Shown here piece after piece: positions 5,246 to 64,000 of a DNA stretch of 64,000 bases. The notes under the pieces were generated by a model, which ran no database searches, was not told the DNA's origin, and saw only the letters and a program-made list of their open reading frames with translations. The translations under genes were made by a program, and so were the position numbers. This stretch comes from an uncultured Lachnospiraceae bacterium (GTDB lineage Bacteria; Bacillota; Clostridia; Lachnospirales; Lachnospiraceae), in contig CAMEIX010000015.1 of NCBI GenBank assembly GCA_945919075.1, positions 1 to 64,000 of the forward strand, in the 5' to 3' direction. Each line of letters begins with the position of its first letter. The stretch's first letter is position 1.

Positions 5246-5269
5246 ATAGTAATTTTATGTGAGGTATGA

Positions 5270-5294
5270 GGCGGAGTGTAATGCTCCGTCTTTT
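5270..5294 (+). terminator. Intrinsic terminator after the relaxase gene
   Basis: GGCGGAG (5270-5276) pairs with CTCCGTC (5284-5290) across a seven-base loop, with one G-T wobble, and TTTT follows. It separates the transfer module from the cargo genes. Confidence 0.7.
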
Positions 5295-5362
5295 ATAAAT
5301 TATAATGCGAAATAACTGATGTTATGATATAATTTAAGAAAACAATTGGTAGAGGTGAAAAC

Positions 5363-5860
5363 ATGTCTAAAGTGATAATACTTAGGGGAAATTCTGGTAG
5401 TGGAAAAACAACAATTGCAAAAGAAATTCAAAAGAACTTTGGCAGAAATACTATGTTGATTTCACAAGATGTTATCAGAAGGGATATGTTAAGGGTAAAG
5501 GATGGAGAAAATACAGAGGCGATATCTCTTATGAAGGAATTATTGGCATATGGTAGGGAACATAGTGATATTGTCATTTTAGAAGGAATTATGTATGCGG
5601 ATTGGTATAAACCTTTATTTGAGTTAGCTATCCAGTTATATGATACGAAAGTATATGCGTATTACTTTGATATTCCTTTTGAAGAAACGTTGAAAAGACA
5701 TCAGACGAAACCAAACTGTAACGAATTTGGAGAAGAAGCAATGCGTAAATGGTGGAGAGAAAAGGATTTTTCAGATGTATTAAAGGAAAGAATTATTACA
5801 TCTGAAAAAGATATTCAGGGCATTGTGAGTGATATTTGTGATAGTGTTTTAAATAGTTAA
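5363..5860 (+). CDS. P-loop kinase (AAA_33 / zeta-toxin-like)
   Basis: This 165-residue protein is a small nucleotide or metabolite kinase-like ATPase. Walker A is GNSGSGKTT near residues 9-17. SQDVIRRDML is placed like the acceptor-binding segment of gluconate/chloramphenicol-type kinases, and a later ETLKRHQTKP stretch supplies lid arginine and lysine. No substrate can be assigned. The ribosome binding site is GAGGTG, seven bases before ATG 5363. It is the first gene of an AT-rich cassette with a HAD hydrolase and an M24 peptidase directly downstream on the same strand, suggesting joint transfer. It could phosphorylate a small molecule, for example an antibiotic, but that is conjecture. Confidence 0.75.
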   Translation: MSKVIILRGNSGSGKTTIAKEIQKNFGRNTMLISQDVIRRDMLRVKDGENTEAISLMKELLAYGREHSDIVILEGIMYADWYKPLFELAIQLYDTKVYAYYFDIPFEETLKRHQTKPNCNEFGEEAMRKWWREKDFSDVLKERIITSEKDIQGIVSDICDSVLNS

Positions 5861-5903
5861 GTAATAAGTTGCTGAATTAAATTATTAGATGTGGAGATGG
5901 TGT

Positions 5904-6563
5904 ATGATAAAAGCATTCTTTCTGGATTTTTATGGAACAGTAGTTCATGAAGATGGTGAGATAATAAAGAAAATTACACAGATAATATACGATACTGGCG
6001 AAGCGGAAAATATGTCAGAGATTGATGCGTTTTGGTGGAATGATTTTCAAAATATGTTTACAAATTCTTATGGAGATTGTTTTGAGACACAAAGAGAATT
6101 AGAAAAGAAGTCCCTGAAGCATACATTGATAAAATTTGGTTCAATTGCTGATGTTGATAGATTAAGCAATTATATGTTTGAACATTGGGTAAAACCGCCT
6201 ATTTTTGAAGATTCATTAAAGTTTTTTGAATCCAGTCCAATTCCAATTTATATTGTCTCAAATATAGACACTGCGGATATTTTGAAAGCAATAGAGTTTC
6301 ATGGATTGACTCCGACAGATGTATTTACATCAGAGGATGCTAGAGCGTATAAGCCAAGGAAAGAACTATTTGAGCTTGCATTGAGAACTACAGGACTGAA
6401 GGCTGATGAAGTAATCCATATTGGAGATTCTTTGAGTAGTGACGTTAAGGGGGCTTCGTCAGCTGGTATTAATGCTTTGTGGCTAAACAGATTTGGTAAA
6501 CAGATTCCTGATGGAGTAGAAAGTATAGCAAGTTTACTAGGTGCTTTAGATAAAATTCGTTAG
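5904..6563 (+). CDS. HAD-superfamily hydrolase
   Basis: This protein of about 219 residues starts at ATG 5904, just after GGAGATGG; an in-frame ATG at 5889 lacks such a signal. HAD motifs are in order: motif I FLDFYGTVVH (nucleophile Asp, with the usual second Asp replaced by Tyr), motif II IYIVSNID, motif III Lys in YKPRKELF, and motif IV HIGDSLSSDVKGA. The Tyr in motif I is seen in YjjG-like members and may alter specificity away from classic phosphomonoesterases. It lies 43 bases after the kinase gene, so a kinase/phosphatase pair acting on related compounds is possible. Confidence 0.82.
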   Translation: MIKAFFLDFYGTVVHEDGEIIKKITQIIYDTGEAENMSEIDAFWWNDFQNMFTNSYGDCFETQRELEKKSLKHTLIKFGSIADVDRLSNYMFEHWVKPPIFEDSLKFFESSPIPIYIVSNIDTADILKAIEFHGLTPTDVFTSEDARAYKPRKELFELALRTTGLKADEVIHIGDSLSSDVKGASSAGINALWLNRFGKQIPDGVESIASLLGALDKIR

Positions 6564-6590
6564 CCTGATAATAGATTCTGACTGTAGAAT

Positions 6591-7325
6591 ATGGGAGAGA
6601 AATTAGGAGATTACATACGGATTGAGTTGGAGGTTATTTTGGAGTATAGAGAAGTACAACGAATTGCAAAGACAACTATTGAATATGCAAAGACCATAAT
6701 AAAGCCGGGAATGAATTTATTACATTTAAGAAAATTATGTGAGCAGAAAATGTTAGAATTAGGGGCAGATTCTTTCTGGTATTGGGATATTGGAGCCTTT
6801 GTATTTGCAGGAGATGAAACCACGGTATCGGTATCCGGAAAACAGTATGTTACAAGTAATAGGATTATTACAGAAAACGATATTGTGACAATTGATTTAA
6901 GCCCTCAGTGTGGAAATATCTGGGGAGACTATGCCAGAACAATAATACTTGAAAATGGTGTGGTAGTAGATAGATGTAAAGTTTCCAATGAAGAGTGGAA
7001 AAACGGCTTAATAATGGAAGACAGACTGCACCATGAATTAGTCGAGTTTGTGAGCAAGGAAACCACATTTGAAGAACTCTATTATCATATTAATGAGATT
7101 ATTTTGAAGGAAGGTTTCGTTAATCTCGATTTTATGGGAAACTTAGGGCATTCAATTGTGAAAGATAAGAATGATCGTGTATATATAGAAAAGGGTAATA
7201 CTCAAAAGATAAGTGATGTAGAATATTTTACTTTTGAACTGCATATAAGCATTCCTGATTCAAACTATGGATATAAGAATGAAAATATTTATTATTTTCA
7301 GAATGGGAAACTGGTTGAATTATAA
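6591..7325 (+). CDS. M24-family metallopeptidase (Xaa-Pro aminopeptidase-like)
   Basis: This 244-residue protein has the pita-bread fold of methionine aminopeptidase and aminopeptidase P. Metal ligands can be read as the two Asp residues in DIVTIDLS...IWGDYARTI, the His in NLGHSI, the Glu in FTFELH and the Glu in YKNENIYY. There is no N-terminal creatinase domain, so it is a minimal catalytic domain. A cytoplasmic peptidase or non-peptidase hydrolase role is plausible. It follows the HAD gene by 27 bases and appears to end the kinase-HAD-M24 cassette. The annotated start is at ATG 6591 with weak GAATATGGGAGAG context; GTG/TTG alternatives downstream cannot be excluded. Confidence 0.8.
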   Translation: MGEKLGDYIRIELEVILEYREVQRIAKTTIEYAKTIIKPGMNLLHLRKLCEQKMLELGADSFWYWDIGAFVFAGDETTVSVSGKQYVTSNRIITENDIVTIDLSPQCGNIWGDYARTIILENGVVVDRCKVSNEEWKNGLIMEDRLHHELVEFVSKETTFEELYYHINEIILKEGFVNLDFMGNLGHSIVKDKNDRVYIEKGNTQKISDVEYFTFELHISIPDSNYGYKNENIYYFQNGKLVEL

Positions 7326-7327
7326 AA

Positions 7328-7346
7328 CTCGCACCAGTGGTGCGAG
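7328..7346. terminator. Perfect hairpin after the M24 gene
   Basis: CTCGCACC (7328-7335) and GGTGCGAG (7339-7346) form a perfect eight-base stem with a three-base loop, three bases after the stop codon. There is no T run on the + strand, but the minus strand continues as TTTTATAA, so it would terminate leftward transcription better than rightward. It may still stabilise or end the cassette mRNA. Confidence 0.5.
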
Positions 7347-7549
7347 AAATTGAAAAGAGATTTAGAGACAACTGGAAGGAATGATTGGGGAAATACAATT
7401 GTTCAAGTACTTTCAACAGAGTTTTTTCTATTGATTTGTTACTGTTTCATAGAAGCAGGATAGCCATATAACCGAAATCGGTGAGTTTGAAGCAGAATAA
7501 GATGTGCGTATATGATGAAAAATGTTTATGAAATAGGATGTGATATGTA

Positions 7550-9037
7550 ATGAAATTGGAAGAGGAGTATGAGTCATATTTGATAGATGCGGATAATATG
7601 TATGACTTGATTGGAAATTGTTTCGGATTGTTATGTAATAATATATCGAATCAGCAGGCATTTATAAGTGAATATTTTGGAGAAGAATCTGGAGAAAACT
7701 GTAATCCTAATATTGAACAGCTAAATTCATTTTCAGAGAAGGTAATGAATGTGGTACATGAGTATGAACCTACTAAGTATAATGATATTTTTGATAAGAT
7801 TATGAAACTAGTTGATGACTTACAGTTGAAGGAATACCTAGATTTGAAGAAAAACCAACTTACAATTGTTTATTGTATTTTGGCTGCAATAGATGCAGAA
7901 GCCATGACTTGGAATATGAAAATGCTTTCCGGAATAATGGGACCATTAGATAGGCAACGAAAAACACAGTATAGAGTTTATTTTAATATGTCGAAAACTT
8001 TACATGGTGATTATATTGAGAATGTAGGGAGAGAAAGGGTACATGCAAGTACATTTTGTGAGTTGTTTAATAGTTTTAGGTTTATTGATGAAAATAGATG
8101 GAAAGAAAATATTAGTGTACCACAAGTGAAACTTGTGACAAGTGTGAGAAAGAGAGTAAAGCAGAGAGAGAAAAGTCCAAAACTACGGATAGGAGTTCTT
8201 CCTATTTCGAATAATATAAATTTTGACTTTATTCCAACCATCGGTAGTGGACTTAGGGTGGATTATTCAAATTCGGAACAAAAACACATTGTTCAAAGGG
8301 TATCATCTGCTTTAGACAGGGCTTTGGAAAAAGATTGCAATATAATTGTATTTCCAGAATATGTGGTGAGCCCTGAAGTATATACTGTTATTAAGGATAA
8401 GATTAGAAAAAACGCATTAAAGAATGGAGTGGATAAGAATCCCTATCTTATTTTTGCAGGAACGACATGGACTGATGATAACAATAATATTATGAGAATT
8501 CTTGATTCTTGGGGAGAAGAGGTAGGCGAATATTACAAATATAGTCCATTCACAAAACAAAAGAGTCAAGAACATAGATTTATTCAGTATGAAGCCTTAC
8601 AGAATCCAGGGAAAAAGTGTGAAGCATTTGCTGTGGAAGAAATTGGGATTTTTTTGCCTGCAATTTGTAGAGATGTTATAGATGGAGAATATACTGAAGA
8701 AATAACAAAGATGTTACTACCATTATTGGTTATTATTTCAGCATGGAGTCCATCTGTTGCTTCATTTGAGCAACGACAAAGAGAGTTGGCAAATAAGTAT
8801 TTTACTAGTTCACTTTTGGCAAATGCATGCAGTTCGGTTAAAAAAAACATATGCAAAATAGGAAATGGAGGTATAGTACATAAGGAGAATACGATTGCAG
8901 GGGTAGAAATAAGCGGGTTATGCCGTGATAACTGTGAAAAGATATGCGAAAATAAGAAGTGTCTTTTTATTGTTGATTATGATTTTTCTTATTCTAAAGA
9001 GGTTAATACAAACATTTGTGTTGATAAGTTAGAATAA
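7550..9037 (+). CDS. Nitrilase-fold (carbon-nitrogen hydrolase) protein with long helical N-terminus
   Basis: This 495-residue protein has two parts. Residues 1 to about 210 are helical and unrecognised. Residues from about 212 resemble the carbon-nitrogen hydrolase fold: the opening strand LRIGVLPISN, then Glu270 (IIVFPEYVVSP), Lys330 (EYYKYSPF) and Cys373 (LPAICRDVID), spaced as in nitrilase catalytic triads. The family hydrolyses amides or nitriles through the Cys. The fusion is not a housekeeping amidase. Nitrilase-like domains are known in some anti-phage proteins, for example beside reverse transcriptases in DRT type 1 systems, but no reverse-transcriptase YxDD motif is present here. 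Two uncharacterised genes follow on the same strand, in an AT-rich stretch of a mobile element. Confidence 0.72.
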   Translation: MKLEEEYESYLIDADNMYDLIGNCFGLLCNNISNQQAFISEYFGEESGENCNPNIEQLNSFSEKVMNVVHEYEPTKYNDIFDKIMKLVDDLQLKEYLDLKKNQLTIVYCILAAIDAEAMTWNMKMLSGIMGPLDRQRKTQYRVYFNMSKTLHGDYIENVGRERVHASTFCELFNSFRFIDENRWKENISVPQVKLVTSVRKRVKQREKSPKLRIGVLPISNNINFDFIPTIGSGLRVDYSNSEQKHIVQRVSSALDRALEKDCNIIVFPEYVVSPEVYTVIKDKIRKNALKNGVDKNPYLIFAGTTWTDDNNNIMRILDSWGEEVGEYYKYSPFTKQKSQEHRFIQYEALQNPGKKCEAFAVEEIGIFLPAICRDVIDGEYTEEITKMLLPLLVIISAWSPSVASFEQRQRELANKYFTSSLLANACSSVKKNICKIGNGGIVHKENTIAGVEISGLCRDNCEKICENKKCLFIVDYDFSYSKEVNTNICVDKLE

Positions 9038-9107
9038 ATATTGTTTGATTTGATAAAAATATTGTGGTAAACTGTTTATAAACTATTTAGTTGAAAGAAG
9101 AGATAGT

Positions 9108-52771: not shown

Positions 52772-52822
52772 GGAAACCACAGTGTAAAAGACATGGGTCA
52801 AAATCGAATAAAGAAAATCCGG

Positions 52823-52854
52823 TATGAGGCTGTGAAAACAGCCTCATATTTTTT
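52823..52854 (+). terminator. Terminator of argS
   Basis: TATGAGGCTG (52823-52832) and CAGCCTCATA (52839-52848) form a perfect ten-base stem with a six-base loop, and six T residues follow. Confidence 0.92.
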
Positions 52855-52924
52855 AATGAGGGGCTTTGCGGCTCCTCTTTTGTTATTCGGATGTAAATAT
52901 TTGTTGCTTTTTGCGATAAAGGTA

Positions 52925-52953
52925 GTGACTTTTATGTTATAATCATATATAAT
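52925..52953 (+). promoter_or_regulatory. Promoter outside the left end of the invertible segment
   Basis: GTGACT (52925-52930) and TATAAT (52948-52953) are spaced by 17 bases; an overlapping TGTTATAAT extended -10 lies at 52936-52944. It points right, toward the left inverted repeat 58 bases away. Because it lies outside the repeat it would stay fixed when the segment inverts and serve whichever gene faces it. Confidence 0.6.
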
Positions 52954-53010
52954 AGCAGTTGATTAGATTAAATTATACATACCGTTGAAGCAGAGGTAAT
53001 CATTGAGCTG

Positions 53011-53052
53011 TGAAGGATAATAGAGGATTATCTGTTGGTTATGTATACGGAT
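53011..53052 (+). repeat. Left copy of the perfect 42-bp inverted repeat
   Basis: All 42 bases are the exact reverse complement of 57158-57199; matching stops at the next base on both sides. It lies between the fixed promoter and the STAND NTPase start, in the 5' untranslated region. Confidence 0.97.
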
Positions 53053-53114
53053 TATATAAAAAGAATAATTATAAATTCTTCAAATTTACTATGAAACATT
53101 CAGAGGAAAACAGT

Positions 53115-55622
53115 ATGCAACAGTTATTACCAAATGAAGAACGATTTATTAATGAAATATACAATCAGATGCACGCTGCAAATACACTTTTTTTTATTTC
53201 CGGAAAGTCTGGTCATGGAAAGACTTTTAGCATTCATCAAGTAACACAAGCATTGGAACAATCAGGGTATTTATTGGTGTCATTTACTGGAGACTCTGTA
53301 CTTTCTGAAAGGGAATATCATCCATTCTACAAGGCCCTGTCAGAAGTTCTTCCATTTAGTGCGGAATATGGACCTAAAAAAGTATTGTCAGACTGTGTTG
53401 ATAGTATTCCAAAGGTGGGACAAGGGGTTAATAAAATATTGAATTTTCTTTCCAAAAGGAATGCTGCACAAAAGAAGATTAGAGATCTGATACTAAATGA
53501 AAAAGAACAAGATATAATGTGTAAACTACAGTATTTGGCAGAACAGAAGGATCTTTTGTTTGTATGTGACAATATAAACTATTGGGATGAAAAATCGCTG
53601 AGATTATTGTACCTTATTTTGCAGAATAGATATACAAAATATGACTTTTTATCAGGAAGTATTTTTATTTTTTTATATACCAGTGATAAAAAGTCAATGA
53701 ATAATGACTTGATCTGTGCAATCAAGGATAGTGTTGATAAAAATGGTAAAATTGATTTTCCCGAATTAAAATGCACGGAATTCAAAGATGCATTAAATAT
53801 TTTAGGATATAAACGTTCACTTTCTGAAAAGGAATGTGAACTGCTGTTTTCCCTAATTAATGGACACATTCGGATGTTAGTAGAACTGATAGATGAATTA
53901 AACCAAAACCGATTAACACTAAACTCAGCAGAAGGTAAACCAAAAGAAATTTTAACCACCATTATTCATCAACGACTAAAGGATTATGGGGCTACTGGCG
54001 AACAAATTAAAATCACCTTAGAATATGCCGCTTTGCTGGGTCTATCTTTTTCAAGTTATGAATTGAACAAAATAATGCAATTGAAAAGCAGTCTATTCGA
54101 AATAATTATCAAACACTCGAATGAAATGAAACTTATTGAAAGGCAAAGTGAAAAAAATAATACATTACAGTTTGCTCATGATATTATACATGAAATATTT
54201 CAGAGTGAGATTTCGGAAAACGGTGCAGAGTACTATGAAAGAATAGAATTATGTCTTAGAGAAATAGAGCCAGGACAATATATCAGGAGATCACAGTATG
54301 CGTTTAAGGCTGGAAATATGAATAGAGCCATTATTTTAGCTGTTTTGAATATTCTTAAACAAATCAGAGAAGATGGTACTATCTCCGATCAAGATTTACT
54401 TAAATATCAAGGACTGTTTGCAAAAGAAAACTCATTTTTTATGTATTACGAATATATTAAACGTATGAAAGAGGGATATGATCTTTATAGACAAGGAGAC
54501 TACGAAAAAGCCCTAAAGACAGTTCTACTAATTGACAAAATATATCCTGTAGAATTTCTTGTAGAAAAAGAAATATTGTGCTCTTATTGTTATACGAAAA
54601 AAATAGAATCCTGTTATAGATATACTGGATTAACGCGCCTTAATAATTATGCTTCAATTGAAAAATGCAACAATGAGCGTGATCTATATGAAAGAGTGCT
54701 TGTACGTTTAACAATATTGGAGGCTCATCTTGGAAATATCAGCGCTGCTCGAACTGCTGAAAGCGAAATAATTCGCTCTCTAAGCAACAGAGTAAATCAT
54801 GATGAGCAAGCTCAAATGCGTTTTCATACATTGAATAGAATTTCCAATGCTTTTTATGATTGTGAAACAGCTGCTGACAAAATGAAAAAAGCTGTAAAAT
54901 ATTTTGGAACCGACTTTGAAAAAGGTGGTCTATGGAGAAACACAAAACAATACTATTTGTCACAAGTTAATTATGCAGGAGTATTGTGCTTGAATGGTGA
55001 GTTCAAAGAGAGCTATGAAAGAAACGAAAAAATATTAGCACTATGTCAGCAGTTTCCAGACTTTCCTTTTCCAAGAACCAATATATTTCTGAATAATTAT
55101 TTGATTTCAGGTTATTTAGCTCATCAATTGACAGTCGAGGAATGCGCCCAAAGTTTTAAGGAATTAGTGGATTCGTTAGATCCTTGTGCAGAAAGATTGT
55201 TTTTCGTTGCTAATTTTTCAATTTTTTTGGCATTGTCTGGAAATGTAAGAGAGGCACTCTTACGATTACAACAAGAAGCGAAAATACAAGATATAAAAGA
55301 AGATAAGGAAAAAATATATAATTATAGAATAGTGTTCAATTCTGGTGTATATCAGTTTTTGCTAAATAATAAGGAGGAAGCTCTTAATATATTTACTAAA
55401 TTAGATGAGCAAATGATTTCTGTGGGGCTAAAGAATGATGAAATATATGCCGAAAAGCGTGTTTCACAAGTAGTACAGTATATATCAAATATGAACTTTC
55501 CAGTTACACCTAAACAGTGGGAAGATATTTTACTACAGAATAGTAGCGAATTCCAACCTACTCCGTGGAATTACTATGGTAAAGGTTATGCTTTTACAAC
55601 TGTATTTAACTGGGATTTATAA
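53115..55622 (+). CDS. STAND-type NTPase with helical repeat region
   Basis: This protein of about 835 residues has an N-terminal NTPase with Walker A GKSGHGKT (residues 30-37) and Walker B LLFVCDNINYWDE. A winged-helix-like middle follows, and a long helical, TPR-like C-terminal half begins near residue 400. This is the layout of STAND signal-transducing NTPases and of MalT-like regulators, but no C-terminal DNA-binding domain is visible. The start is ATG 53115 behind AGAGGAAA. The frame opens at GTG 53010 inside the repeat, so a read-through product would carry repeat-encoded residues. It overlaps the convergent GNAT gene by 17 bases. The gene is AT-rich. Confidence 0.72.
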   Translation: MQQLLPNEERFINEIYNQMHAANTLFFISGKSGHGKTFSIHQVTQALEQSGYLLVSFTGDSVLSEREYHPFYKALSEVLPFSAEYGPKKVLSDCVDSIPKVGQGVNKILNFLSKRNAAQKKIRDLILNEKEQDIMCKLQYLAEQKDLLFVCDNINYWDEKSLRLLYLILQNRYTKYDFLSGSIFIFLYTSDKKSMNNDLICAIKDSVDKNGKIDFPELKCTEFKDALNILGYKRSLSEKECELLFSLINGHIRMLVELIDELNQNRLTLNSAEGKPKEILTTIIHQRLKDYGATGEQIKITLEYAALLGLSFSSYELNKIMQLKSSLFEIIIKHSNEMKLIERQSEKNNTLQFAHDIIHEIFQSEISENGAEYYERIELCLREIEPGQYIRRSQYAFKAGNMNRAIILAVLNILKQIREDGTISDQDLLKYQGLFAKENSFFMYYEYIKRMKEGYDLYRQGDYEKALKTVLLIDKIYPVEFLVEKEILCSYCYTKKIESCYRYTGLTRLNNYASIEKCNNERDLYERVLVRLTILEAHLGNISAARTAESEIIRSLSNRVNHDEQAQMRFHTLNRISNAFYDCETAADKMKKAVKYFGTDFEKGGLWRNTKQYYLSQVNYAGVLCLNGEFKESYERNEKILALCQQFPDFPFPRTNIFLNNYLISGYLAHQLTVEECAQSFKELVDSLDPCAERLFFVANFSIFLALSGNVREALLRLQQEAKIQDIKEDKEKIYNYRIVFNSGVYQFLLNNKEEALNIFTKLDEQMISVGLKNDEIYAEKRVSQVVQYISNMNFPVTPKQWEDILLQNSSEFQPTPWNYYGKGYAFTTVFNWDL

Positions 55623-56022
55623 TGAGTTCCATCCCCATTCCCTTAGTTCGACCATCTCGTTTTTGAAATCCTATTTTTTCATAAAACGATTCCCTCTCTT
55701 TAGAAGCCATGAGACTTACGACTGCAAAGGAAGAAGCATGCCTATAAACATAGTCAAGAAGAGAATTGACTAACAAAGTTCCAACTCCCTTGTTTTGATA
55801 ATCTGGCAATACCACGATATCTTGAATGAAAAAAGAAAGTATGTTGTCACCGGTCATACGTCCCATTCCTATAATATTGTCATCGTAATATGCAGAAACA
55901 GTTAATATACTGTTCTCTATTGCAGTGGTGAAAATCTCCTTGGGCTGTGAAGTCCAAGGAGTACTGGCTCTAAGATAAGCCCATTCTTCAGCTGTTAATG
56001 TATTATATTCTATCTTTAACAT
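55606..56022 (-). CDS. GNAT-family N-acetyltransferase of the invertible module
   Basis: This 138-residue acetyltransferase has the acetyl-CoA motif IQDIVVLPDYQNKGVGTLLV and the motif B FAVVSLMASKERESFYEKIGF. Its substrate is unknown. It overlaps the end of the ATP-grasp gene by seven bases, so the two are made together, and it converges with the STAND gene. Acetylation of a product of the ligase, or of a toxic compound, is possible. Confidence 0.82.
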   Translation of the reverse strand: MLKIEYNTLTAEEWAYLRASTPWTSQPKEIFTTAIENSILTVSAYYDDNIIGMGRMTGDNILSFFIQDIVVLPDYQNKGVGTLLVNSLLDYVYRHASSFAVVSLMASKERESFYEKIGFQKRDGRTKGMGMELIINPS

Positions 56023-57101
56023 AAACTCTCCCAGGACAGGGTCAAACCTATCAATGTGTCTAAAACATCTGCATACGTTAATCCAAATTCTTGATATTCA
56101 TAATAGAACGTCATACTTTTTGTAATATGAGGATTGGTGGCTATATCTGTGACGTACGCGTTGCCCATAGAATCAATGCGGTAGTCTATGCGTCCCATGT
56201 TTTTGATTCCAATTGCGGTAGCAATATCTTCTGTTAAATACTCAAGACTTGCCGCTAACTCAGGTTTAATTTCGTGAAAATTATAATGCTTAAACTTATG
56301 GTTGCCACGTATATCATAATCTAAAATCTTATTACCAAGGCATTTATTGTTCTCTATGGAAATGCCGGCCGGGAACAGACTGCAGCATTCTGTTGCAGAG
56401 ATAAGTACAGGAACTTCAGTTTCGAATCCACTTATAAATTTTTCAACAATAACATCTTGATTAAATTTTTTTGACATCTCGATAATGAAAGTATCAGTTG
56501 TCAAATTATACTCTACAATATTGGAATGCGTTAAGCCAATACTTGATGATTCAGAATTAACCTTCAAAATTACGGTTTCACCAATAGGTGGACATTTTTT
56601 AGCTATCCATCCGTCCCTTTTGCTGAAATACCAGCTTGGGCATACGGGGAATCCCATTTCTTTTAGAAAACAATACCAGTGGAACTTGTTTCGTGCAAAA
56701 CTAACTGTATATGGATCACTGCTTGCACATAAGATATTGTGTAATTGGCAAAAGGCAGGAATAAGCGATTTTCGCCCTATACCGATACCCTTTTGGGCCG
56801 AGTTAATAACTAACATCTTTCGAGGATAGTTATTTCTGATAATGCCACTTTCATAGTCTGCAATAAAATCATTTTCATCAAAATAGCACTTTACGGAATA
56901 ATCGTTAAACTTGATAGTATTAAAAATTTCTTCGTATTGTGAGTACGAATAATACTCACTTATTACAGAACTTTGAGAATAATCGTTAAAGTTATTTGTA
57001 ACCCCTTTTACATTCATAACAAGAATTATAAGTAATTTTTCTTTATTTTTATGAGCATAATCAATATATTTACGTACAAATTCTCTTTGCTTTTGGTACA
57101 T
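56016..57101 (-). CDS. ATP-grasp ligase (D-Ala-D-Ala ligase-like)
   Basis: This 361-residue protein has an N-terminal pre-ATP-grasp domain and a C-terminal ATP-grasp domain: SESSSIGLTHSNIVEY, DVIVEKFISGFETEVPVLI and GRIDYRIDSMGNAYVTDIAT with NPH as the metal-binding end. Such enzymes form amide or ester bonds between a carboxylate and an amine or hydroxyl. TTAGGAGAAGATTGTT precedes the ATG on the minus strand. In the present orientation the only transcription into it would come from the recombinase side across the right repeat. Confidence 0.8.
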   Translation of the reverse strand: MYQKQREFVRKYIDYAHKNKEKLLIILVMNVKGVTNNFNDYSQSSVISEYYSYSQYEEIFNTIKFNDYSVKCYFDENDFIADYESGIIRNNYPRKMLVINSAQKGIGIGRKSLIPAFCQLHNILCASSDPYTVSFARNKFHWYCFLKEMGFPVCPSWYFSKRDGWIAKKCPPIGETVILKVNSESSSIGLTHSNIVEYNLTTDTFIIEMSKKFNQDVIVEKFISGFETEVPVLISATECCSLFPAGISIENNKCLGNKILDYDIRGNHKFKHYNFHEIKPELAASLEYLTEDIATAIGIKNMGRIDYRIDSMGNAYVTDIATNPHITKSMTFYYEYQEFGLTYADVLDTLIGLTLSWESLC

Positions 57102-57157
57102 AACAATCTTCTCCTAAATAATATACAGAATAATTTGATATATGGTTTTCTATAAAG

Positions 57158-57199
57158 ATCCGTATACATAACCAACAGATAATCCTCTATTATCCTTCA
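57158..57199 (-). repeat. Right copy of the perfect 42-bp inverted repeat
   Basis: This copy is the exact reverse complement of 53011-53052. It lies upstream of the ATP-grasp gene and contains the last codons and the stop codon of the recombinase, so inversion would leave the recombinase intact. Confidence 0.97.
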
Positions 57200-58155
57200 T
57201 CCACCATAATGGGCTCCTGTAGAAAAGTTTGTGACCCGATATGAAATTTCTGCCGGGGATGTTTGGTAGTGAGGATGTCTTTCTGCTTGGACATAGCAAC
57301 GTGTGTATAAATTTCGGTAATGTTTATGGAACTGTGTCCGAGGATATTCTGTATGTATCGAATATCTACGTCGGCCTCTAAAAGACTGGTAGCAAAAGTG
57401 TGGCGGAACATGTGCGGGGTTATGTGCAGGTTAATGGCGGCAAGAGAGGTGTATTTGTTTATCATACGTCGTACCGCCTGATCGGAAAATGGCTTGCCGG
57501 ATTGATTTACAAAAAAGTGGTTGGATTGCAGAATTTCATTTTGGTAACAGTCACGGTATTCCTTTAGTATCTTAATGACATCTACATTGCCAAGCTGCAC
57601 GCGGCGCTCTTTGCAGCCTTTTCCGTAAATTAGGATTACCCCATCCCGCAGGTCTACATTTGCAGGAGTGAGGGAGCATAATTCTGAAATTCTGATTCCG
57701 GTGGCAAAAAGCATTTCAATCACAGCAATATCTCTAAGGGCATTTTTTTCCTGACAGGGGGTCTTGGAAAGGGCACGCTTCCTATAAATGAAACTCATAA
57801 AGTTTTCTATTGTGTGAAGAGGAATGGTTTTAGGCAATATCACAGGTTCTCGCAGCTTTATCTGCAATTTGTTAAATGGATTTATTGCAATAATATCTTT
57901 GTATTCCAAGTAGTGGAAGAAGGTTTTGAGGGAGGCAATTTTTCGCTTAACAGTTTTGGGTTTATATTTTTGATTTAAGGTTGCAATATAGCTTTCCAAC
58001 TCCAATTGCGTAATCTGGTCTAGGGGCATTTCATTCATCATATACCTGAATTGGGTTAAATCGATTCGGTATGCTTTAATGGATTTCTTGTCCAGTCTTT
58101 TTTGATTCATACAATATTCTAAGTAATTTTGGATCAGTAATTCTAATTGTTTCAT
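57190..58155 (-). CDS. XerC/XerD-like tyrosine recombinase (probable invertase)
   Basis: This 321-residue recombinase has an N-terminal core-binding domain and a catalytic domain with Arg in TGIRISELCS, the HxxR in HMFRHTFATS, a His in GHSSINI and the nucleophile Tyr in IYTHVAM. All catalytic residues are present. AAGGAGAAATAAG precedes ATG 58155 on the minus strand. Unlike chromosomal XerC/D, its 3' end lies inside one of the 42-bp repeats, a typical position for DNA invertases that act on the sites beside them. It is the likely enzyme for the inversion. Confidence 0.92.
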   Translation of the reverse strand: MKQLELLIQNYLEYCMNQKRLDKKSIKAYRIDLTQFRYMMNEMPLDQITQLELESYIATLNQKYKPKTVKRKIASLKTFFHYLEYKDIIAINPFNKLQIKLREPVILPKTIPLHTIENFMSFIYRKRALSKTPCQEKNALRDIAVIEMLFATGIRISELCSLTPANVDLRDGVILIYGKGCKERRVQLGNVDVIKILKEYRDCYQNEILQSNHFFVNQSGKPFSDQAVRRMINKYTSLAAINLHITPHMFRHTFATSLLEADVDIRYIQNILGHSSINITEIYTHVAMSKQKDILTTKHPRQKFHIGSQTFLQEPIMVDEG

Positions 58156-58263: not shown

Positions 58264-58383
58264 AATAAAGATACTGGAAAAATATAATAAAAATAATTTA
58301 TAAAAAAAATTACAAATCAATGTAACGAAATGGCTGTCTGAACACATATATAAGTAGAGGGATAAATTTTGACAGGGGGACAA

Positions 58384-58869
58384 ATGATGAAGATTAGACA
58401 GAGAAAAAAGAGTAAAAAGAGCAAGAGACTGATTATTTTAATGGTTACGATTAGTCTTTTCATGATACTTTCTGACAATGTAAATGCGGAAAGCTATGAA
58501 TATGACAAGCTGGGTCGGGTGCGAAAGGTAACTTATGATGACGGATCATGTATTACCTATGAATATGATGCAAACGGAAATATTACAAATAAGAAGGCAT
58601 CAGTCGTAAAGAAGCCCGGACAGGAACCAGGATCGGGAACAGGAACAGAGCCGGGAGCGGGAACGGATCCGGGAACGGGAACAGAGCCGGGAACGGGAAC
58701 AGAGCCGGGAGCGGGAACGGATCCGGGAACGGGAACAGAGTCGGGAACAGGAACAGATCCGGAGGAGAAAAAGACATTCTGGGAAAAGATATGGGATTCC
58801 GAAACGGGTTTTTTCAAAAATGTCTGGAAGTGGATAAAGTTATTATTTGGAAATACGGAGGAAGAATAG
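58384..58869 (+). CDS. Secreted YD-repeat miniprotein
   Basis: This protein of about 161 residues starts at ATG 58384 behind AGGGGGACAA. A basic, hydrophobic signal peptide ends near VNAES. Two YD-type RHS repeat units follow (YEYDKLGRVRKVTYDDGS and YEYDANGNITNK). Then comes a PGTGTEPGAGTD linker and a C-terminal aromatic, basic helix (FFKNVWKWIKLLFG). YD repeats normally occur in long arrays, so a protein with only two is unusual. It is followed after one base by the giant surface protein, with which it may interact. Confidence 0.75.
   Translation: MMKIRQRKKSKKSKRLIILMVTISLFMILSDNVNAESYEYDKLGRVRKVTYDDGSCITYEYDANGNITNKKASVVKKPGQEPGSGTGTEPGAGTDPGTGTEPGTGTEPGAGTDPGTGTESGTGTDPEEKKTFWEKIWDSETGFFKNVWKWIKLLFGNTEEE
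58620..58755 (+). repeat. PGTGTE/PGAGTD-encoding tandem repeats
   Basis: Eighteen-base units of CCGGGAACGGGAACAGAG type alternate with GGAGCGGGAACGGATC variants over about 135 bases, giving six to seven copies in frame. Repeat number is likely variable between strains. Confidence 0.85.
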
Positions 58870-58870
58870 C

Positions 58871-61800
58871 ATGAATAGGATATTTCGGAAAGTACTTGCA
58901 TGGATTCTTATAGTCGTTATGCTTCCCATCAGCAGTTTTCAGGATTGTTTTGCTATGTCAGCCTACGCGGCAGAGGATACATGGGTAAGTGGAACGGAAA
59001 ATGAAAATCAAGAGTTGTCAGAAGGGGAAGAGGTCAGCAGCGGTGACGCAGGAAACCGGGAAGATGAGGAGCTGGAAGTACAAAGTATGACCATTACCTC
59101 TGACTATACACTGTCGGAGAATCTGATTGTCAACGATTTAAATCTGACGGGTGGAACTTTAAATCTGAATGGATACCGTATAGAGGTACAGGGGAATTGT
59201 TATGTAGAAAGCGGCACATTGAATCTGGGCGGTGGTGCTGTTTCCTGTGAAGGAAATTTAGTAGTGGGCAGTAACGCCACAGTATACATGAGAAATGCAA
59301 ATGACTATCTGAGGGTTGCCGGAAATATTGAATGGAATAAATACGGAAATGGCGCACAATGCTTAACCAAAGGTTTAATAGAATGCGGGGGAGACTTTAG
59401 TGCAGCAGCCGGATTTGTTGGCTCCGACAGTCACAGAGTTGTATTTAGCGGAACCGGAAAACAGACGGTTTTTCTGGCAGAGGGTGGAAAATTCGGGATT
59501 TTTGAATTAAAGAATTTCAGCACGGATGGAGTTTATACGGAAAACGTTTTTACTTATGACTCTTTCATAGGGAATGACTGTGTATTTCGCGTGGGAACGA
59601 CAACCGGCATCTGTGGGTTTACACTTAAAGAGGATATGGTCTACGACAAGGATTTGCTTCTGGTAATGGGAGCCCTTGATTTAAGTGGTCATACCCTGAC
59701 TGTACAGGGCGATTTAATCCAACAGGGTGGAGAAGTGTTTCTAAACGGAGGACAACTCATAGTAGAGGGGGATTATCGAATTCAGTCCCGGACGGAAACA
59801 GAGGATGGCTTTGAATATGGTGACAGTACCGGTATTTTAAAGATGACAGAGGAGAAAGAAAGTGTTCTGGTAAAGGGGGATTTTGTTTCTTCTTCCACCA
59901 GAGATGAGACCGGACTGTTGACCGCCGGTGTATTGGAAGTGCAGGGGAATTTTACCATTCTTGGCTGCAAAAATACCGCACTGTATTCCGAAAAATCTTT
60001 CCCTGCTTCCGGAACGCATACCGTAAAGCTGTCCGGTGAAAAGAGACAGGAAGTCTCCATGCGCTATGCCACCGATTATAGTTCGCATATCCAGAACCTG
60101 GAATTAGCCAATACCGGTGAGGAAGGAATCTTTTTCTCTGCGGACGATATGGTATGTGTTACCGGGAATATAAAGGATTTGTCAAGCCAGGTTACGGGTT
60201 GCATCAGAGTGGAAGCATCCACAACCTATGAGGACGGTTATTTTGGCGGAAGCATTTATATGTGCAGCGGCAGAACTATGCCGGACAATCTGCATATAGG
60301 GGAGGATATTATATTCTCTGCGGAGTCCCGGTTTGCAACCTATTCTATTGCCGGCAAAATACAGGTGGATGGAAATGTAAGGTTACAGTCATTCTGCGAA
60401 ATTAACATGAACAGAGGAAGCCTCATGGTAGGAGGCAATATGGATGTAGCCACACCGGTTAATCATAATGGTGGAATCAATATGACTCATGAGGAGGACT
60501 ACATTCACGTATATGGGGATTTTACTCACGAGAATTACTACCCTTATCTGTGGACTGCCGGTACATTGGAAGTAGGCGGGAACTTTTACAGTAAAGGCAG
60601 ACTCGCTGCAAGTAACACCCATCGCCTGTTATTGTCAGGGAAACAAAAACAGATTGTTTTAATGGATGATGGTGATTATTTTGCAACCATAGAATTGCAG
60701 AACAGCTCAGAAGACGGTGTCTATTCTGACAAGCCGTTTACCAAAAACCAATTGATTACTCATGATACAAAACTGACCTACGGAGATTTTGAAGGGGAGA
60801 TTGGCTATATTTTGACGGAAGATACCGTTTATGAAGGTGACTTCACATTATTGGAAGGCGTACTGGATTTAAATGGTTATCAATTAACGATTCGCGGTAA
60901 TTTTACGCAGATAGCAGGAGAAGTTTTGGTTCATGGGGGCAGTCTCAGGATAGAAGGTGACTATCGGATGCAGGCCGGTGATAGCAAGAGCTCCGGTATG
61001 CTTACCATGACGGATTCGGAGGATTTTGTCCATGTTTCCGGGGACTTTATTACGGCAACTTCCGTGGATCATACCGGGAAATTGACCGCAGGTGTTTTAG
61101 AGGTCTCAGGAAATGTGAAGGTATTTGCAACATATTCCGATAAGGCATTTGTTTCCACAGGTAGTCATACTTTTCGTTTATCCGGTGAAATGCAGCAAAA
61201 GGTATTCTTTGAAATATCCGGACCTGCTACTTCAAGAGTAGGAACCCTGGAAATAACAAATACAAGCGAAGAGGGGGTTTTGTTTGACGAGAATGATCCT
61301 CTCTATGTTTCCTCCTTGTTAAATGATCATGGCAACCGAAGTAAGGGTTATGTCAGCATTGGTGGAAGTACGGTGGTGGAAAACGAATCTTTCAGTGGAG
61401 ACTTGCAGATCGAGGCTGATCGTAGAATCGAAGCCGAACATAAATTAAATGTAGGGGGTAATCTGCGTGCAATCCGATATGACAGCAGTAGGGTATTTTA
61501 TCTTACTTGCAATGGAGAACTCCATGTGGGCGGAGATTTTATCCAGGAAAGAGTTTTATTACAAATCGGTACAGGAACCGTGACCGTAGACGGAAATTAT
61601 GTTTCATGTGGCGTTGGGATGGATAATGCCGAAGGGTTCATTCATGTTTCCGGTAATTGTACATTTACCGCAGATGCCTCTTACATGAACATGAGTGCAG
61701 GTGTTTTTGAGGTAGGCGGTGACCTGACGGTAAACGGCGGACTTCATGCCACCGGAACCAACCGGTTTATTTTCTGCGGGGACAGGCTTCAGACCATACG

Positions 61801-64000
61801 AATTGCAGATGGAAATTACTTTGCAGACGTAGAATTACATAATTACAGTGAAGAAGGCGTTTACAGTGAAACGGTATTTGCCAGAAATAATCTTTTCCGA
61901 AATGGCTGTAGGTTAAGATACGGTACATTACAGGGTGAATTCGGGGATATCCTGACGGAAGATATGGTTTACGAGGGCGACTATTGCCTGATTGACGATA
62001 CACTGGACTTAAATGGACATAAACTGACGGTTACCGGTGATTTTATACATATGGCGGGAACCGTAAAGGTAAATGGCGGAACCCTGATTGTGGAAGGGGA
62101 TTATCGGATTCAGAGCCGTGAAAAGGAAGGGGAAAGCTATATCTACAAAGCCGGTGCCGGCAAACTTCTCATGGAAAATGAGGACGACTATGTGCTCGTA
62201 AAGGGCAGCTTTGTAAATGAGAGCAGTGTCAATCATACCGGGTGTCTGAAAGCGGGTACACTGGAGATAAGGGGTGATATAACCGTATCCGGAAGTGCCA
62301 GCGGATACAACTACGAGGATTACAGCTTTATCGGAACGGACGATTTTACCCTGCAATTAAGCGGTGATGGCATACAGACCGTGGAGATTTCCCATTCTTC
62401 TGAAAAATACTCCCGTCTGGCCAATCTGGAAATTACCAATACGACAGGGGTCAGATTACTTGGGGATATTTACATTACAGGAAACATTAATGATCATGGA
62501 AATCCTGTGGAAGGCCGTTATACAGCCACCAAAGGGACAAGCTTTACGGACAATATCTGTAACCATGACCTGTTGCTTGCCAGCGGAGTGGAAATTAAGA
62601 GTCCCTTAACCGTTAAGGGCAATGTTACCGCCTGCAATATTTCCATCAGCTCGACTTTGGAGGTGGAAGGAAATTACACCCAGATTTTTGGCAGTAACAC
62701 ACAAATGGTAGAAGGTCAGCTCATTGTGCATGGGAACTATACCGCATCGGGAGGGACTTTTTCTAACAATACCGGTATCAGCATGACCCACGAAAAGGAC
62801 TATGTACATATCTTGGGAAATGTAACTTATTCCACCTATGGACAGCCTCTTAGTGATGGGGTTTACGAGATAGGCGGCGACTTAACCTCTTACGTAGGAA
62901 TTGGAGCTACGAATAACCATAAATTTGTCTTTAGCGGGGAGGCTCTGCAGACCGTCTCTCTGGGGGGAAACGAATACTTTGCAACTGTGGAATTAAAGAA
63001 TTACAGTGTGGACGGCGTGTGTTTTAACGGACCAATTATAAGGCAGAAGTTAATCCGAAACGGCTGCCGCCTGACCATTTTAGGGGAGGAGGCAACCATC
63101 GGATTTACCCTGGAAGAGGACCGTGTTATAGAAGGGGATTTGTTCCTTACGGAAGATACGATTGACCTAAATGGTCATTCCCTTACCGTAAAAGGTAATT
63201 TTATCCAGAGCGGCGGGGATGTACTCCTGAACGGAGGAAGTCTTTCTGTAGAGGGAGATTATCGCATTCAGTCTTATACCACAACCGGAAACAGCATGAC
63301 TTACGGAACCGGAAGCGGACGGCTGATGATGGTTAATGAAAATGACCGGCTTAAGGTAGGCGGTACATTTGCCATGCAGACAAAAACATTCTCCGGCGGG
63401 ATGTTCACAGCCGGTACCATGAATCTGGCAGGGGATGTCAATATCGCCGGAAACTGGAATTTCCAAGCTACCGGAAGTCATACCGTGATACTGGATGGAG
63501 CCGGTGTCCAGACCATATCGGCCGGAACGGGAAATGTTTTTCAGAATCTGTTTATTAAGAACGGCAATCAGGTAATCTTAGGTTCCTCCCTGTCGGTTAT
63601 AGGAGAGGTCCGGGATGAGGGCAGAAGCATAACCGGTACCGGTAATGTTTCCATCAAAGAGCTCTCGCAGTTAGCAGACAATACCTTCAGCGGGAATCTG
63701 GTGCTGACCGAAAACAATGTGTTAGACAGCGACTTATGGGTCGGCGGAACACTTTATGTCAATGCGTCGCTTGAAGGGAAGAAATATGAAATTCAGGCCG
63801 GCAGACTGGAGATTTCCGGTTCTCTATGTGTACAAAATGCACAGGTATATTGCCTGGACTCCTGCGTAATAGCCTATCGTGGCAAAATAGTTATGCAGGA
63901 AGAAGCGGGCTACCTGCTTTGCGGCGGCGATTTTCTCATGCATTCCTGCGTCAATCACAGAGGAATACTGACCGCCGGAACATTGGAAATCCGCGGAAAT
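58871..64000 (+). CDS. Giant repeat-containing surface protein (3' end beyond the window)
   Basis: An uninterrupted frame of 1,710 codons runs from ATG 58871 to the last base. A signal peptide (VLAWILIVVMLPISSF, ending near YAAED) is followed by a beta-rich region made of short N-G-G turns. Four long units are recognisable by an anchor of the form LDLNGHxLTVxGDFIQxGG, then NGGxLxVEGDYRIQS, at about 59678, 60866, 62006 and 63164. Spacing is 396, 380 and 386 codons. Each unit also has a (S/N)HxxxLSGxxxQ segment. It is probably a cell-surface beta-solenoid-like protein; RHS repeats may follow further on, as suggested by the YD miniprotein. Confidence 0.8.
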   Translation, partial: MNRIFRKVLAWILIVVMLPISSFQDCFAMSAYAAEDTWVSGTENENQELSEGEEVSSGDAGNREDEELEVQSMTITSDYTLSENLIVNDLNLTGGTLNLNGYRIEVQGNCYVESGTLNLGGGAVSCEGNLVVGSNATVYMRNANDYLRVAGNIEWNKYGNGAQCLTKGLIECGGDFSAAAGFVGSDSHRVVFSGTGKQTVFLAEGGKFGIFELKNFSTDGVYTENVFTYDSFIGNDCVFRVGTTTGICGFTLKEDMVYDKDLLLVMGALDLSGHTLTVQGDLIQQGGEVFLNGGQLIVEGDYRIQSRTETEDGFEYGDSTGILKMTEEKESVLVKGDFVSSSTRDETGLLTAGVLEVQGNFTILGCKNTALYSEKSFPASGTHTVKLSGEKRQEVSMRYATDYSSHIQNLELANTGEEGIFFSADDMVCVTGNIKDLSSQVTGCIRVEASTTYEDGYFGGSIYMCSGRTMPDNLHIGEDIIFSAESRFATYSIAGKIQVDGNVRLQSFCEINMNRGSLMVGGNMDVATPVNHNGGINMTHEEDYIHVYGDFTHENYYPYLWTAGTLEVGGNFYSKGRLAASNTHRLLLSGKQKQIVLMDDGDYFATIELQNSSEDGVYSDKPFTKNQLITHDTKLTYGDFEGEIGYILTEDTVYEGDFTLLEGVLDLNGYQLTIRGNFTQIAGEVLVHGGSLRIEGDYRMQAGDSKSSGMLTMTDSEDFVHVSGDFITATSVDHTGKLTAGVLEVSGNVKVFATYSDKAFVSTGSHTFRLSGEMQQKVFFEISGPATSRVGTLEITNTSEEGVLFDENDPLYVSSLLNDHGNRSKGYVSIGGSTVVENESFSGDLQIEADRRIEAEHKLNVGGNLRAIRYDSSRVFYLTCNGELHVGGDFIQERVLLQIGTGTVTVDGNYVSCGVGMDNAEGFIHVSGNCTFTADASYMNMSAGVFEVGGDLTVNGGLHATGTNRFIFCGDRLQTIRIADGNYFADVELHNYSEEGVYSETVFARNNLFRNGCRLRYGTLQGEFGDILTEDMVYEGDYCLIDDTLDLNGHKLTVTGDFIHMAGTVKVNGGTLIVEGDYRIQSREKEGESYIYKAGAGKLLMENEDDYVLVKGSFVNESSVNHTGCLKAGTLEIRGDITVSGSASGYNYEDYSFIGTDDFTLQLSGDGIQTVEISHSSEKYSRLANLEITNTTGVRLLGDIYITGNINDHGNPVEGRYTATKGTSFTDNICNHDLLLASGVEIKSPLTVKGNVTACNISISSTLEVEGNYTQIFGSNTQMVEGQLIVHGNYTASGGTFSNNTGISMTHEKDYVHILGNVTYSTYGQPLSDGVYEIGGDLTSYVGIGATNNHKFVFSGEALQTVSLGGNEYFATVELKNYSVDGVCFNGPIIRQKLIRNGCRLTILGEEATIGFTLEEDRVIEGDLFLTEDTIDLNGHSLTVKGNFIQSGGDVLLNGGSLSVEGDYRIQSYTTTGNSMTYGTGSGRLMMVNENDRLKVGGTFAMQTKTFSGGMFTAGTMNLAGDVNIAGNWNFQATGSHTVILDGAGVQTISAGTGNVFQNLFIKNGNQVILGSSLSVIGEVRDEGRSITGTGNVSIKELSQLADNTFSGNLVLTENNVLDSDLWVGGTLYVNASLEGKKYEIQAGRLEISGSLCVQNAQVYCLDSCVIAYRGKIVMQEEAGYLLCGGDFLMHSCVNHRGILTAGTLEIRGN

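What the first reader, a model, noticed from the sequence alone, without database searches (positions are those of the whole stretch)
52925..58155. Invertible two-state module: one fixed promoter, two alternative operons
A perfect 42-bp inverted repeat (53011-53052 and 57158-57199) encloses 4.1 kb containing two convergent units, each starting next to one repeat: a STAND-type NTPase (+) and an ATP-grasp ligase plus GNAT (-). A promoter lies just outside the left repeat and a XerC/D-like recombinase gene lies at the right repeat. Inversion would couple the fixed promoter to the ligase operon instead of the NTPase, and the recombinase side to the NTPase. Known invertons mostly flip a short promoter; switching a promoter between two large, dissimilar cargo operons would be a novel phase-variable system.
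Basis: partly seen in the sequence, partly recalled or inferred. Interest (0 to 1): 0.95.

Follow-up and report, generated by a model that had tools for sequence, protein, structure and literature searches.

The report
Flippable cassette of two rival operons
A 4.1-kilobase stretch bounded by a perfect 42-base inverted repeat, with a recombinase gene at one end, carries two head-on operons (a predicted sensor ATPase of the STAND type and a predicted peptide-ligase-like enzyme) and is likely flipped so that one outside promoter would drive one operon or the other; dozens of related loci, mostly in Lachnospiraceae bacteria, show the same layout with many different gene pairs, and the assembly of one named strain of a relative contains both orientations.

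Summary
The 42-nt inverted repeat is perfect; its 19-nt core pattern GGATAAT-N5-RTTATCY matches nowhere else in the 3.0-Mb genome. It belongs to a large family. Of 131 distinct recombinase relatives (window included), 73 have this core at the gene's 3' end; 38 loci have an inverted partner, none a direct one. Both arms have the same 5-nt spacer in 24 of 24 loci, with 15 different spacers. 36 of 38 cargos are two convergent units, whose 3' ends overlap unusually often. Promoter-like sequence is enriched outside the arm farther from the recombinase. In Hominisplanchenecus murintestinalis NM72_1-8 the recombinase flank is joined to one cargo end in one contig and to the other end in another: both orientations. 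A distant relative carries the window's type of pair the other way round. Cargos often face STAND, TIR, SIR2 or Mrr proteins against enzymes. The topology has precedents (phage Mu G segment, Moraxella pilin); new are the recombinase family, the unlike cargos and the scale. Expression switching is inferred, and this genome's assembly shows one orientation only.

The parts
52925..52953 (+). predicted fixed promoter, -35 GTGACT / 17 nt / -10 TATAAT, outside the left arm and pointing into the cassette
   Evidence: similar sites (ATGACT, GTGACA, GTGATT, each 17 nt before TATAAT) lie outside the far arm of L039, L045 and G105
53011..53052 (+). left arm of the 42-nt inverted repeat (core GGATAATAGAGGATTATCT, 53015-53033)
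53115..55622 (+). STAND-type NTPase with C-terminal TPR-like helices (835 aa, probable start)
55606..56022 (-). GNAT acetyltransferase (138 aa)
56016..57101 (-). ATP-grasp ligase of the D-Ala-D-Ala ligase fold (361 aa)
57158..57199 (-). right arm of the inverted repeat (core 57177-57195), overlapping the recombinase stop codon
57190..58155 (-). XerC/D-like tyrosine recombinase (321 aa); R155, K179, H248, R251, H274, Y283 conserved (catalytic assignment recalled)

Best explanation
This is a site-specific inversion switch: a XerC/D-like tyrosine recombinase likely recombines two inverted GGATAAT-N5-RTTATC sites and would thereby flip a 4.1-kb cassette of two convergent operons, so that a predicted promoter fixed outside the far arm would drive either the STAND NTPase or the ATP-grasp/GNAT operon. 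Shown by sequence: the perfect arms, their being the only two matches to the core pattern in the genome, the conserved catalytic residues, the convergent units with overlapping 3' ends, and, in relatives, matched spacers and both orientations (in one strain's assembly and between genomes). Inferred: recombination at this locus, activity of the promoter, and the change of expression. Also inferred: the 3' overlap leaves no room between the operons for a separate terminator, so the promoter-proximal transcript would probably run antisense through the other operon. In this locus the recombinase-side operon may still be read at some level together with the recombinase.
For: Perfect 42-nt arms; core pattern found only at the two arms. 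R155, K179, H248, R251, H274, Y283 each at 1.00 in the alignment of 131 recombinases. 30 of 131 loci have an inverted partner of a site at the recombinase 3' end; no direct partner in the 76 loci with such a site nor in the 58 without, within the stretches fetched; 9 more loci have an inverted pair elsewhere, one of them (L161) probably chance. Same spacer in both arms in 24 of 24 loci with exact cores, 15 different spacers. 36 of 38 cargos convergent; 3' overlap in 20 of 37 cargo pairs against 20 of 143 other convergent ORF pairs, p=1e-6. Both orientations in strain NM72_1-8. In six more genomes two contigs share only 19-29 nt around the site, at least one ending exactly there. The window's type of pair in opposite orientation in L195; TIR/SIR2 opposite in L051 and L220 at 74-77% identity. 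Contigs end within 250 bp after the recombinase in 30 of 73 loci with the site against 1 of 58 without. Promoter score of the far flank exceeds that of the near flank (p=0.002), its own reverse strand (p=0.001) and shuffles (p=0.0002); the inner arms score below shuffles.
Against: Only one orientation is assembled in this genome. L195 is a distant relative (28% and 45% identity). In L051 and L220 the two arms carry Thoeris-like halves (SIR2-STALD and TIR), which are expected to be needed together, so strict one-or-the-other expression would be odd there. The window and 17 other loci have the site at or within 12 nt of the recombinase stop, with no terminator between recombinase and near operon, and 36 of 55 loci with a gap show no terminator by my criterion. 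31 of 50 far flanks score below 9 in the promoter scan; 5 of 50 near flanks and 5 of 50 reversed far flanks reach 9. 58 of 131 recombinase relatives have no such site at the 3' end; a few carry one upstream of the gene.
Confidence: 0.82

Rival explanations
1. The recombinase is an integrase that captures and exchanges whole gene cassettes at the site beside its own gene (integron-like), and inversion is a by-product.
For: The site abuts the recombinase gene; in L039/L045 and L051/L092 the recombinase and flanks are alike while the cargos show no DNA similarity at E<=1e-5.
Against: The cargos found are bounded by an inverted pair; no direct partners in the fetched stretches; no arrays of cassettes seen; both orientations coexist. 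Exchange of cargo may happen, but by another route such as homologous recombination in the flanks.
Confidence: 0.08
2. Inversion happens but is not a promoter switch: both operons are expressed in both states, or the inversion mainly sets the ratio of two partners of one system.
For: Thoeris-like halves on opposite arms in L051 and L220; site at or near the recombinase stop without terminator in 18 loci; partner pairs recur in distant genomes, and relatives of the window's two genes are listed on contigs of the same lengths.
Against: Promoter-like signal lies mainly outside the far arm and is depleted inside both arms; terminator-like hairpins between recombinase and site in 19 of 55 loci with a gap, against 0.9 expected from shuffles.
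Confidence: 0.25
3. The repeat in this genome is a frozen relic, no longer inverted.
For: A single orientation in the window genome's assembly.
Against: Recombinase with conserved catalytic residues, perfect arms, open reading frames.
Confidence: 0.1

Closest known systems
Phage Mu G segment (Gin), and the related e14 P segment (PinE/PinQ)
   Same: Invertible segment beside the recombinase gene; inversion decides which of two gene pairs (S-U or S'-U') is expressed (PMC4406740, passages read); e14 P-segment inversion yields a phage-blocking protein (PMC12529663, abstract and Discussion read)
   Different: Those use serine recombinases (stated for PinQ; recalled for Gin) and alternative versions of tail-fibre genes; here a tyrosine recombinase, unlike partners, bacterial chromosomes, immune-type and enzyme genes
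Moraxella pilin inversion
   Same: Invertible locus behind pilin phase variation (listed in PMC11868660, passages read; the two-gene, one-promoter detail is recalled)
   Different: Two homologous pilin genes, a different recombinase, one function (recalled)
Short invertible promoters: fim, Clostridioides difficile Cdi switches
   Same: Inverted repeats, tyrosine or serine recombinases, phase variation (PMC5903667, passages read)
   Different: There a 154-314 bp intergenic segment (966 bp in the Salmonella flagellar switch) moves; here the promoter is predicted to be fixed and 1.9-6.7 kb of genes move
Inverton group 139 with tyrosine invertase group 35 in Clostridia (PMC11892184, passages read)
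   Same: 32 of its 33 invertons are from Clostridia; a nearby tyrosine recombinase
   Different: The one example with coordinates in the passages spans about 0.2 kb between its repeats; its repeat motif is in supplements that I could not read, so kinship of the recombinases is untested
Thoeris
   Same: Cargos of L051 and L220 match ThsA (E 1e-59, 1e-60) and, more weakly, ThsB-like TIR models (E 6e-12, 2e-12)
   Different: The two genes lie head-on inside an invertible cassette, one at each arm

Membership tests
Site-specific inversion switch (inverton) | Two inverted copies of one recombination site | tested here: met
Site-specific inversion switch (inverton) | Intact recombinase of a site-specific class | tested here: met
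Site-specific inversion switch (inverton) | Both orientations occur | tested here: inconclusive
   Shown for relatives; only one orientation assembled in the window's own genome
Site-specific inversion switch (inverton) | Expression changes with orientation | not testable with these tools
   needs RNA data
Mu G-segment type switch | Promoter fixed outside, two convergent alternative units inside | tested here: met
   (promoter by sequence score only)
Mu G-segment type switch | Serine recombinase, homologous alternative genes | tested here: not met
   tyrosine recombinase; partners match different Pfam families
XerC or XerD (host dimer resolution) | NCBIfam equivalog cut-off | tested here: not met
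   238.1 against 335.15 and 230.1 against 329.6 bits; a second Xer-like gene (35% identical) lies elsewhere in the genome
Integron or cassette array | Directly repeated sites or cassette arrays | tested here: not met
   no direct partners in the stretches fetched for 131 loci
Known anti-phage system (window cargo) | Match to a PADLOC model | tested here: not met
   0 families for the window NTPase; ligase and GNAT not scanned in PADLOC
STAND NTPase | P-loop NTPase with a C-terminal repeat domain | tested here: met
   AAA_16 at E 1.5e-5 (26 bits, below the cut-off of 32.6); Walker A GKSGHGKT (motif recalled); best fold match is a STAND-TPR protein, 6mfv, with only moderate TM-scores of 0.36/0.44

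The most novel reading that the evidence does not exclude
A widespread, so far undescribed class of split immune switches in Lachnospiraceae: each cassette holds a signal- or product-making enzyme on one arm and an NLR-like (STAND/SIR2/TIR/Mrr) sensor-effector on the other, and one recombinase toggles clonal cells between the two halves, giving the population a division of labour in defence, with whole cassettes exchanged at fixed chromosomal sites.
Probability: 0.4. Interest if true: 0.93.

Novelty: new variant of a known kind. Interest (0 to 1): 0.83.

Why it matters
Phase variation is mostly known for surface structures and restriction specificity. Here a recombinase family, found in 51 of 397 sampled genomes of the window's taxonomic family, its own included, appears to put NLR-like immune-type genes and partner enzymes under one flip switch, with many interchangeable gene pairs. 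That makes it directly testable whether bacterial innate immunity is phase-variable at the level of whole systems, and it offers a simple sequence signature (GGATAAT-N5-RTTATC pair plus recombinase) for finding new immune-type gene pairs.

Tried and rejected
Chance repeat: rejected. Integron-like capture: no direct partners found. Start of the NTPase inside the repeat: rejected, homologues are shorter at that end. Closer carriers of the window cargo with the opposite orientation: an ATP-grasp search of 138 same-genus genomes (own included) found only the window's own. Of 30 viral-contig relatives only one recombinase (L161, 66%) is close; its site pair lies among repeat-like genes and is probably chance, so it is left out of the cargo counts. 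Plasmid records hold two distant ATP-grasp relatives. PADLOC did not recognise the window NTPase; over only 7 of 20 cargo proteins scanned match a PADLOC model at E<=1e-10. The c6/c0 pair (L223 against L236/L241) is opposite relative to the recombinase but not relative to the flank with the better promoter score, so I do not count it as opposite in expression state; for L218/L246 and L075/L101 the promoter side is unclear or the far flank was too short. My promoter matrix uses recalled consensus weights. Assembler k values (55, 127, 141) are recalled, not read from the records.

Searches behind 'not described': judged from the titles and abstract starts listed (lists were capped: 25 of 78, 24 of 26, 15 of 48). 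Most subscription papers and bioRxiv are not held.

Full report
THE LOCUS. The inverted repeat is exact: 53011-53052 and 57158-57199, 42 nt, 100% complementary, 4105 nt apart. It holds a partly palindromic core, GGATAAT-AGAGG-ATTATCT. In the 3.0-Mb genome the pattern GGATAATNNNNNRTTATCY matches once in each direction, and these are the two arms. Inside, a STAND-type NTPase (+) and an ATP-grasp ligase with a GNAT acetyltransferase (-) converge, overlapping by 17 bp. The recombinase (57190-58155, -) scores well to XerC/XerD models but far below their equivalog cut-offs; a second Xer-like gene (35% identical) lies elsewhere in the genome. Its stop codon sits inside the right arm.

THE FAMILY. In 397 genomes of the window's taxonomic family 51, the own included, had one at E<=1e-75. 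With 60 further stretches, one viral contig and the window, 142 loci were examined, 11 duplicates removed, 131 kept. R155, K179, H248, R251, H274 and Y283 are each conserved at 1.00 in the alignment of the 131. 73 of 131 have the core (at most 1 mismatch) at the recombinase 3' end (76 with up to 2 mismatches). 30 of 131 have an inverted partner on the same stretch; no direct partner was found for the 76 sites tested nor among the 58 other loci. 9 more loci have an inverted pair elsewhere, one of which (L161) I regard as chance. Looking only for exact cores with any spacer, 24 of 24 loci with a candidate partner had one with the same spacer (one locus, L223, also had a candidate with another spacer), and 15 different spacers occur. 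That is expected of a strand-exchange region. In four loci (L088, L204, L206, L224) the two arms share only the 17-nt core, too short for ordinary homologous recombination (recalled).

ARCHITECTURE. 36 of 38 cargos (without L161) are strictly convergent two-unit cassettes (exceptions L111 and L246); the 38 span 1.9-6.7 kb. ORFs were called mechanically. The 3' ends overlap in 20 of 37 convergent cargo pairs, against 20 of 143 other convergent ORF pairs in the fetched stretches (p=1e-6). A consensus promoter score, by a matrix of my own, was computed for 50 loci with usable flanks on both sides (37 cassettes with pairs would be 38 less L075 and L246, dropped for short flanks, that is 36, plus 14 broken assemblies; L161 left out). 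It is higher outside the far arm (mean 8.05) than outside the recombinase-side arm (6.28, p=0.002), than on the opposite strand of the far flank (6.47, p=0.001) and than in shuffles (6.41, p=0.0002); the near flank does not differ from shuffles (p=0.74). A score of 9 is reached by 19 far flanks, 5 near flanks, 5 reversed far and 3 reversed near flanks; at 8 the numbers are 21, 11, 13 and 4. The near flanks at 9 or more are L098 (site upstream of the recombinase), L236, L241 and G545 (recombinases of 46-47% identity), where the far flank scores low, and G177, where the far flank scores higher still. The first 100 bp inside the arms score below shuffles (5.39 against 6.18, p=0.0004), 3 of 76 reaching 9. 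Terminator-like hairpins lie between recombinase and site in 19 of 55 loci that have a gap, 0.9 expected; in 18 loci, the window among them, the site begins at or within 12 nt of the recombinase stop.

BOTH ORIENTATIONS. The clearest case is H. murintestinalis NM72_1-8 (G105; a strain record, not labelled a MAG). Contig C63 reads recombinase, site, then cargo end B up to 28 bp past the shared 55 nt. Contig C129 reads far flank, site, B ... A, site, then 26 bp of recombinase flank. The recombinase flank is thus joined to A in one contig and to B in the other. Thirty-six other genomes were searched for the site pattern, and contig ends sharing the site were compared in 13 of them. In G545, G577, G113, G177, G110 and G117 two contigs share only 19-29 nt around the site, at least one of them ending exactly there. 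A repeat that short should not break an assembly unless both junctions were in the reads (inference). In G112 and G056 the same cargo end is joined to two flanks with overlaps of 127 and 141 nt; these fit both orientations but could also come from a repeat that long (the longest arm in an intact locus is 126 nt). G099 (34-36 nt), G315 (38), G102 (55) and G100 (55, with a gap of N) are less telling. Over the whole set, contigs end within 250 bp after the recombinase in 30 of 73 loci with the site and in 1 of 58 without. Between genomes, the window's type of pair lies the other way round in L195 (ATP-grasp 45%, NTPase 28% identical), and a TIR/SIR2 pair is opposite in L051 and L220 (77%, 74%). 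Three more pair types are opposite relative to the recombinase, but not demonstrably relative to the promoter.

CARGO. One arm tends to carry STAND, TIR, SIR2, Mrr-nuclease, TPR or pentapeptide proteins; the other ATP-grasp, glycosyltransferase, radical SAM, aminotransferase, SHMT-like, carbamoyltransferase or polyprenyl-synthetase enzymes (40 relatives' proteins scanned, 7 without any Pfam match; L051 and L220, with TIR facing SIR2, fit the division only if TIR counts as the enzyme). Against known defence models, 7 of 20 proteins scanned match at E<=1e-10. L051 and L220 match Thoeris ThsA and a ThsB-like TIR, one on each arm; G099 has a similar-looking pair that was not scanned. Partner pairs recur in distant genomes. 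Relatives of the window's NTPase and ligase are listed with longest contigs of identical length: ten lengths are shared between the two result lists, nine of them 4.09-4.30 kb, about the cassette's size (the ligase list shows 120 of 197). This shows that the pair travels together; it is not evidence of inversion, since a 42-nt repeat can end short-k contigs by itself. The ligase model (pLDDT 91.7) matches D-Ala-D-Ala ligases; the NTPase model (76.4) best matches a STAND-TPR protein, with moderate TM-scores; no solved chain matches it by sequence. In L039/L045 and L051/L092 the recombinase (91% and 80% DNA identity) and the far flank (88% and 81% in the longest alignment) are alike while the cargos show no DNA similarity, so whole cassettes seem to be replaced in place.

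READING. I conclude that this is a tyrosine-recombinase inversion switch with the promoter logic of phage Mu's G segment, in which unlike operons, often an immune-type sensor and an enzyme, alternate. Recombination at this very locus, and its effect on expression, remain to be shown. The Thoeris-like halves on opposite arms are the main result against strict exclusivity: either both arms are expressed to some degree, or switching separates the halves of one system on purpose. The second possibility is the most novel reading.

LITERATURE. Nine searches listed no title or abstract start that describes such cassettes; three of the lists were capped. Papers read in part: PMC12529663 (outline, abstract, Discussion), PMC11868660 (passages), PMC5903667 (passages), PMC4406740 (passages) and PMC11892184 (passages).

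Noticed in passing
L155 (G111:C44) 4908-9084: A cassette with paired inverted sites, a 1032-aa gene facing a glycosyltransferase-like gene (by eye, not scanned), and no recombinase of this family at E<=1e-20 in the fetched 17 kb; perhaps served in trans by a recombinase elsewhere in the genome.
   Followed up: partly
L144 7-76, L043 10995-11044, L063 10927-10994: A second palindromic GGATAAT-like motif 33-51 bp (start to start) inside the core, toward the cargo; possibly an accessory recombinase or regulator site.
   Followed up: no
L088, L097, L098, L239, L240: Recombinase relatives with the site upstream of the gene instead of downstream; in L088, L097 and L098 the recombinase-side flank has the better promoter score.
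   Followed up: partly
window 58369-64000: A gene with an RHS-repeat match and a tandem-repeat region (58608-58769), followed by a long stretch with degenerate repeats, just beyond the recombinase.
   Followed up: no
P0059, P0063, P0066, P0069: Proteins of 508-510 aa (one named from Enterococcus) that carry GNAT and the same ATP-grasp family in one chain, which supports a joint function of the two window genes.
   Followed up: no
window 52822-52855: Terminator-like hairpin after argS, which would separate the cassette's predicted promoter from upstream transcription (seen by eye).
   Followed up: no
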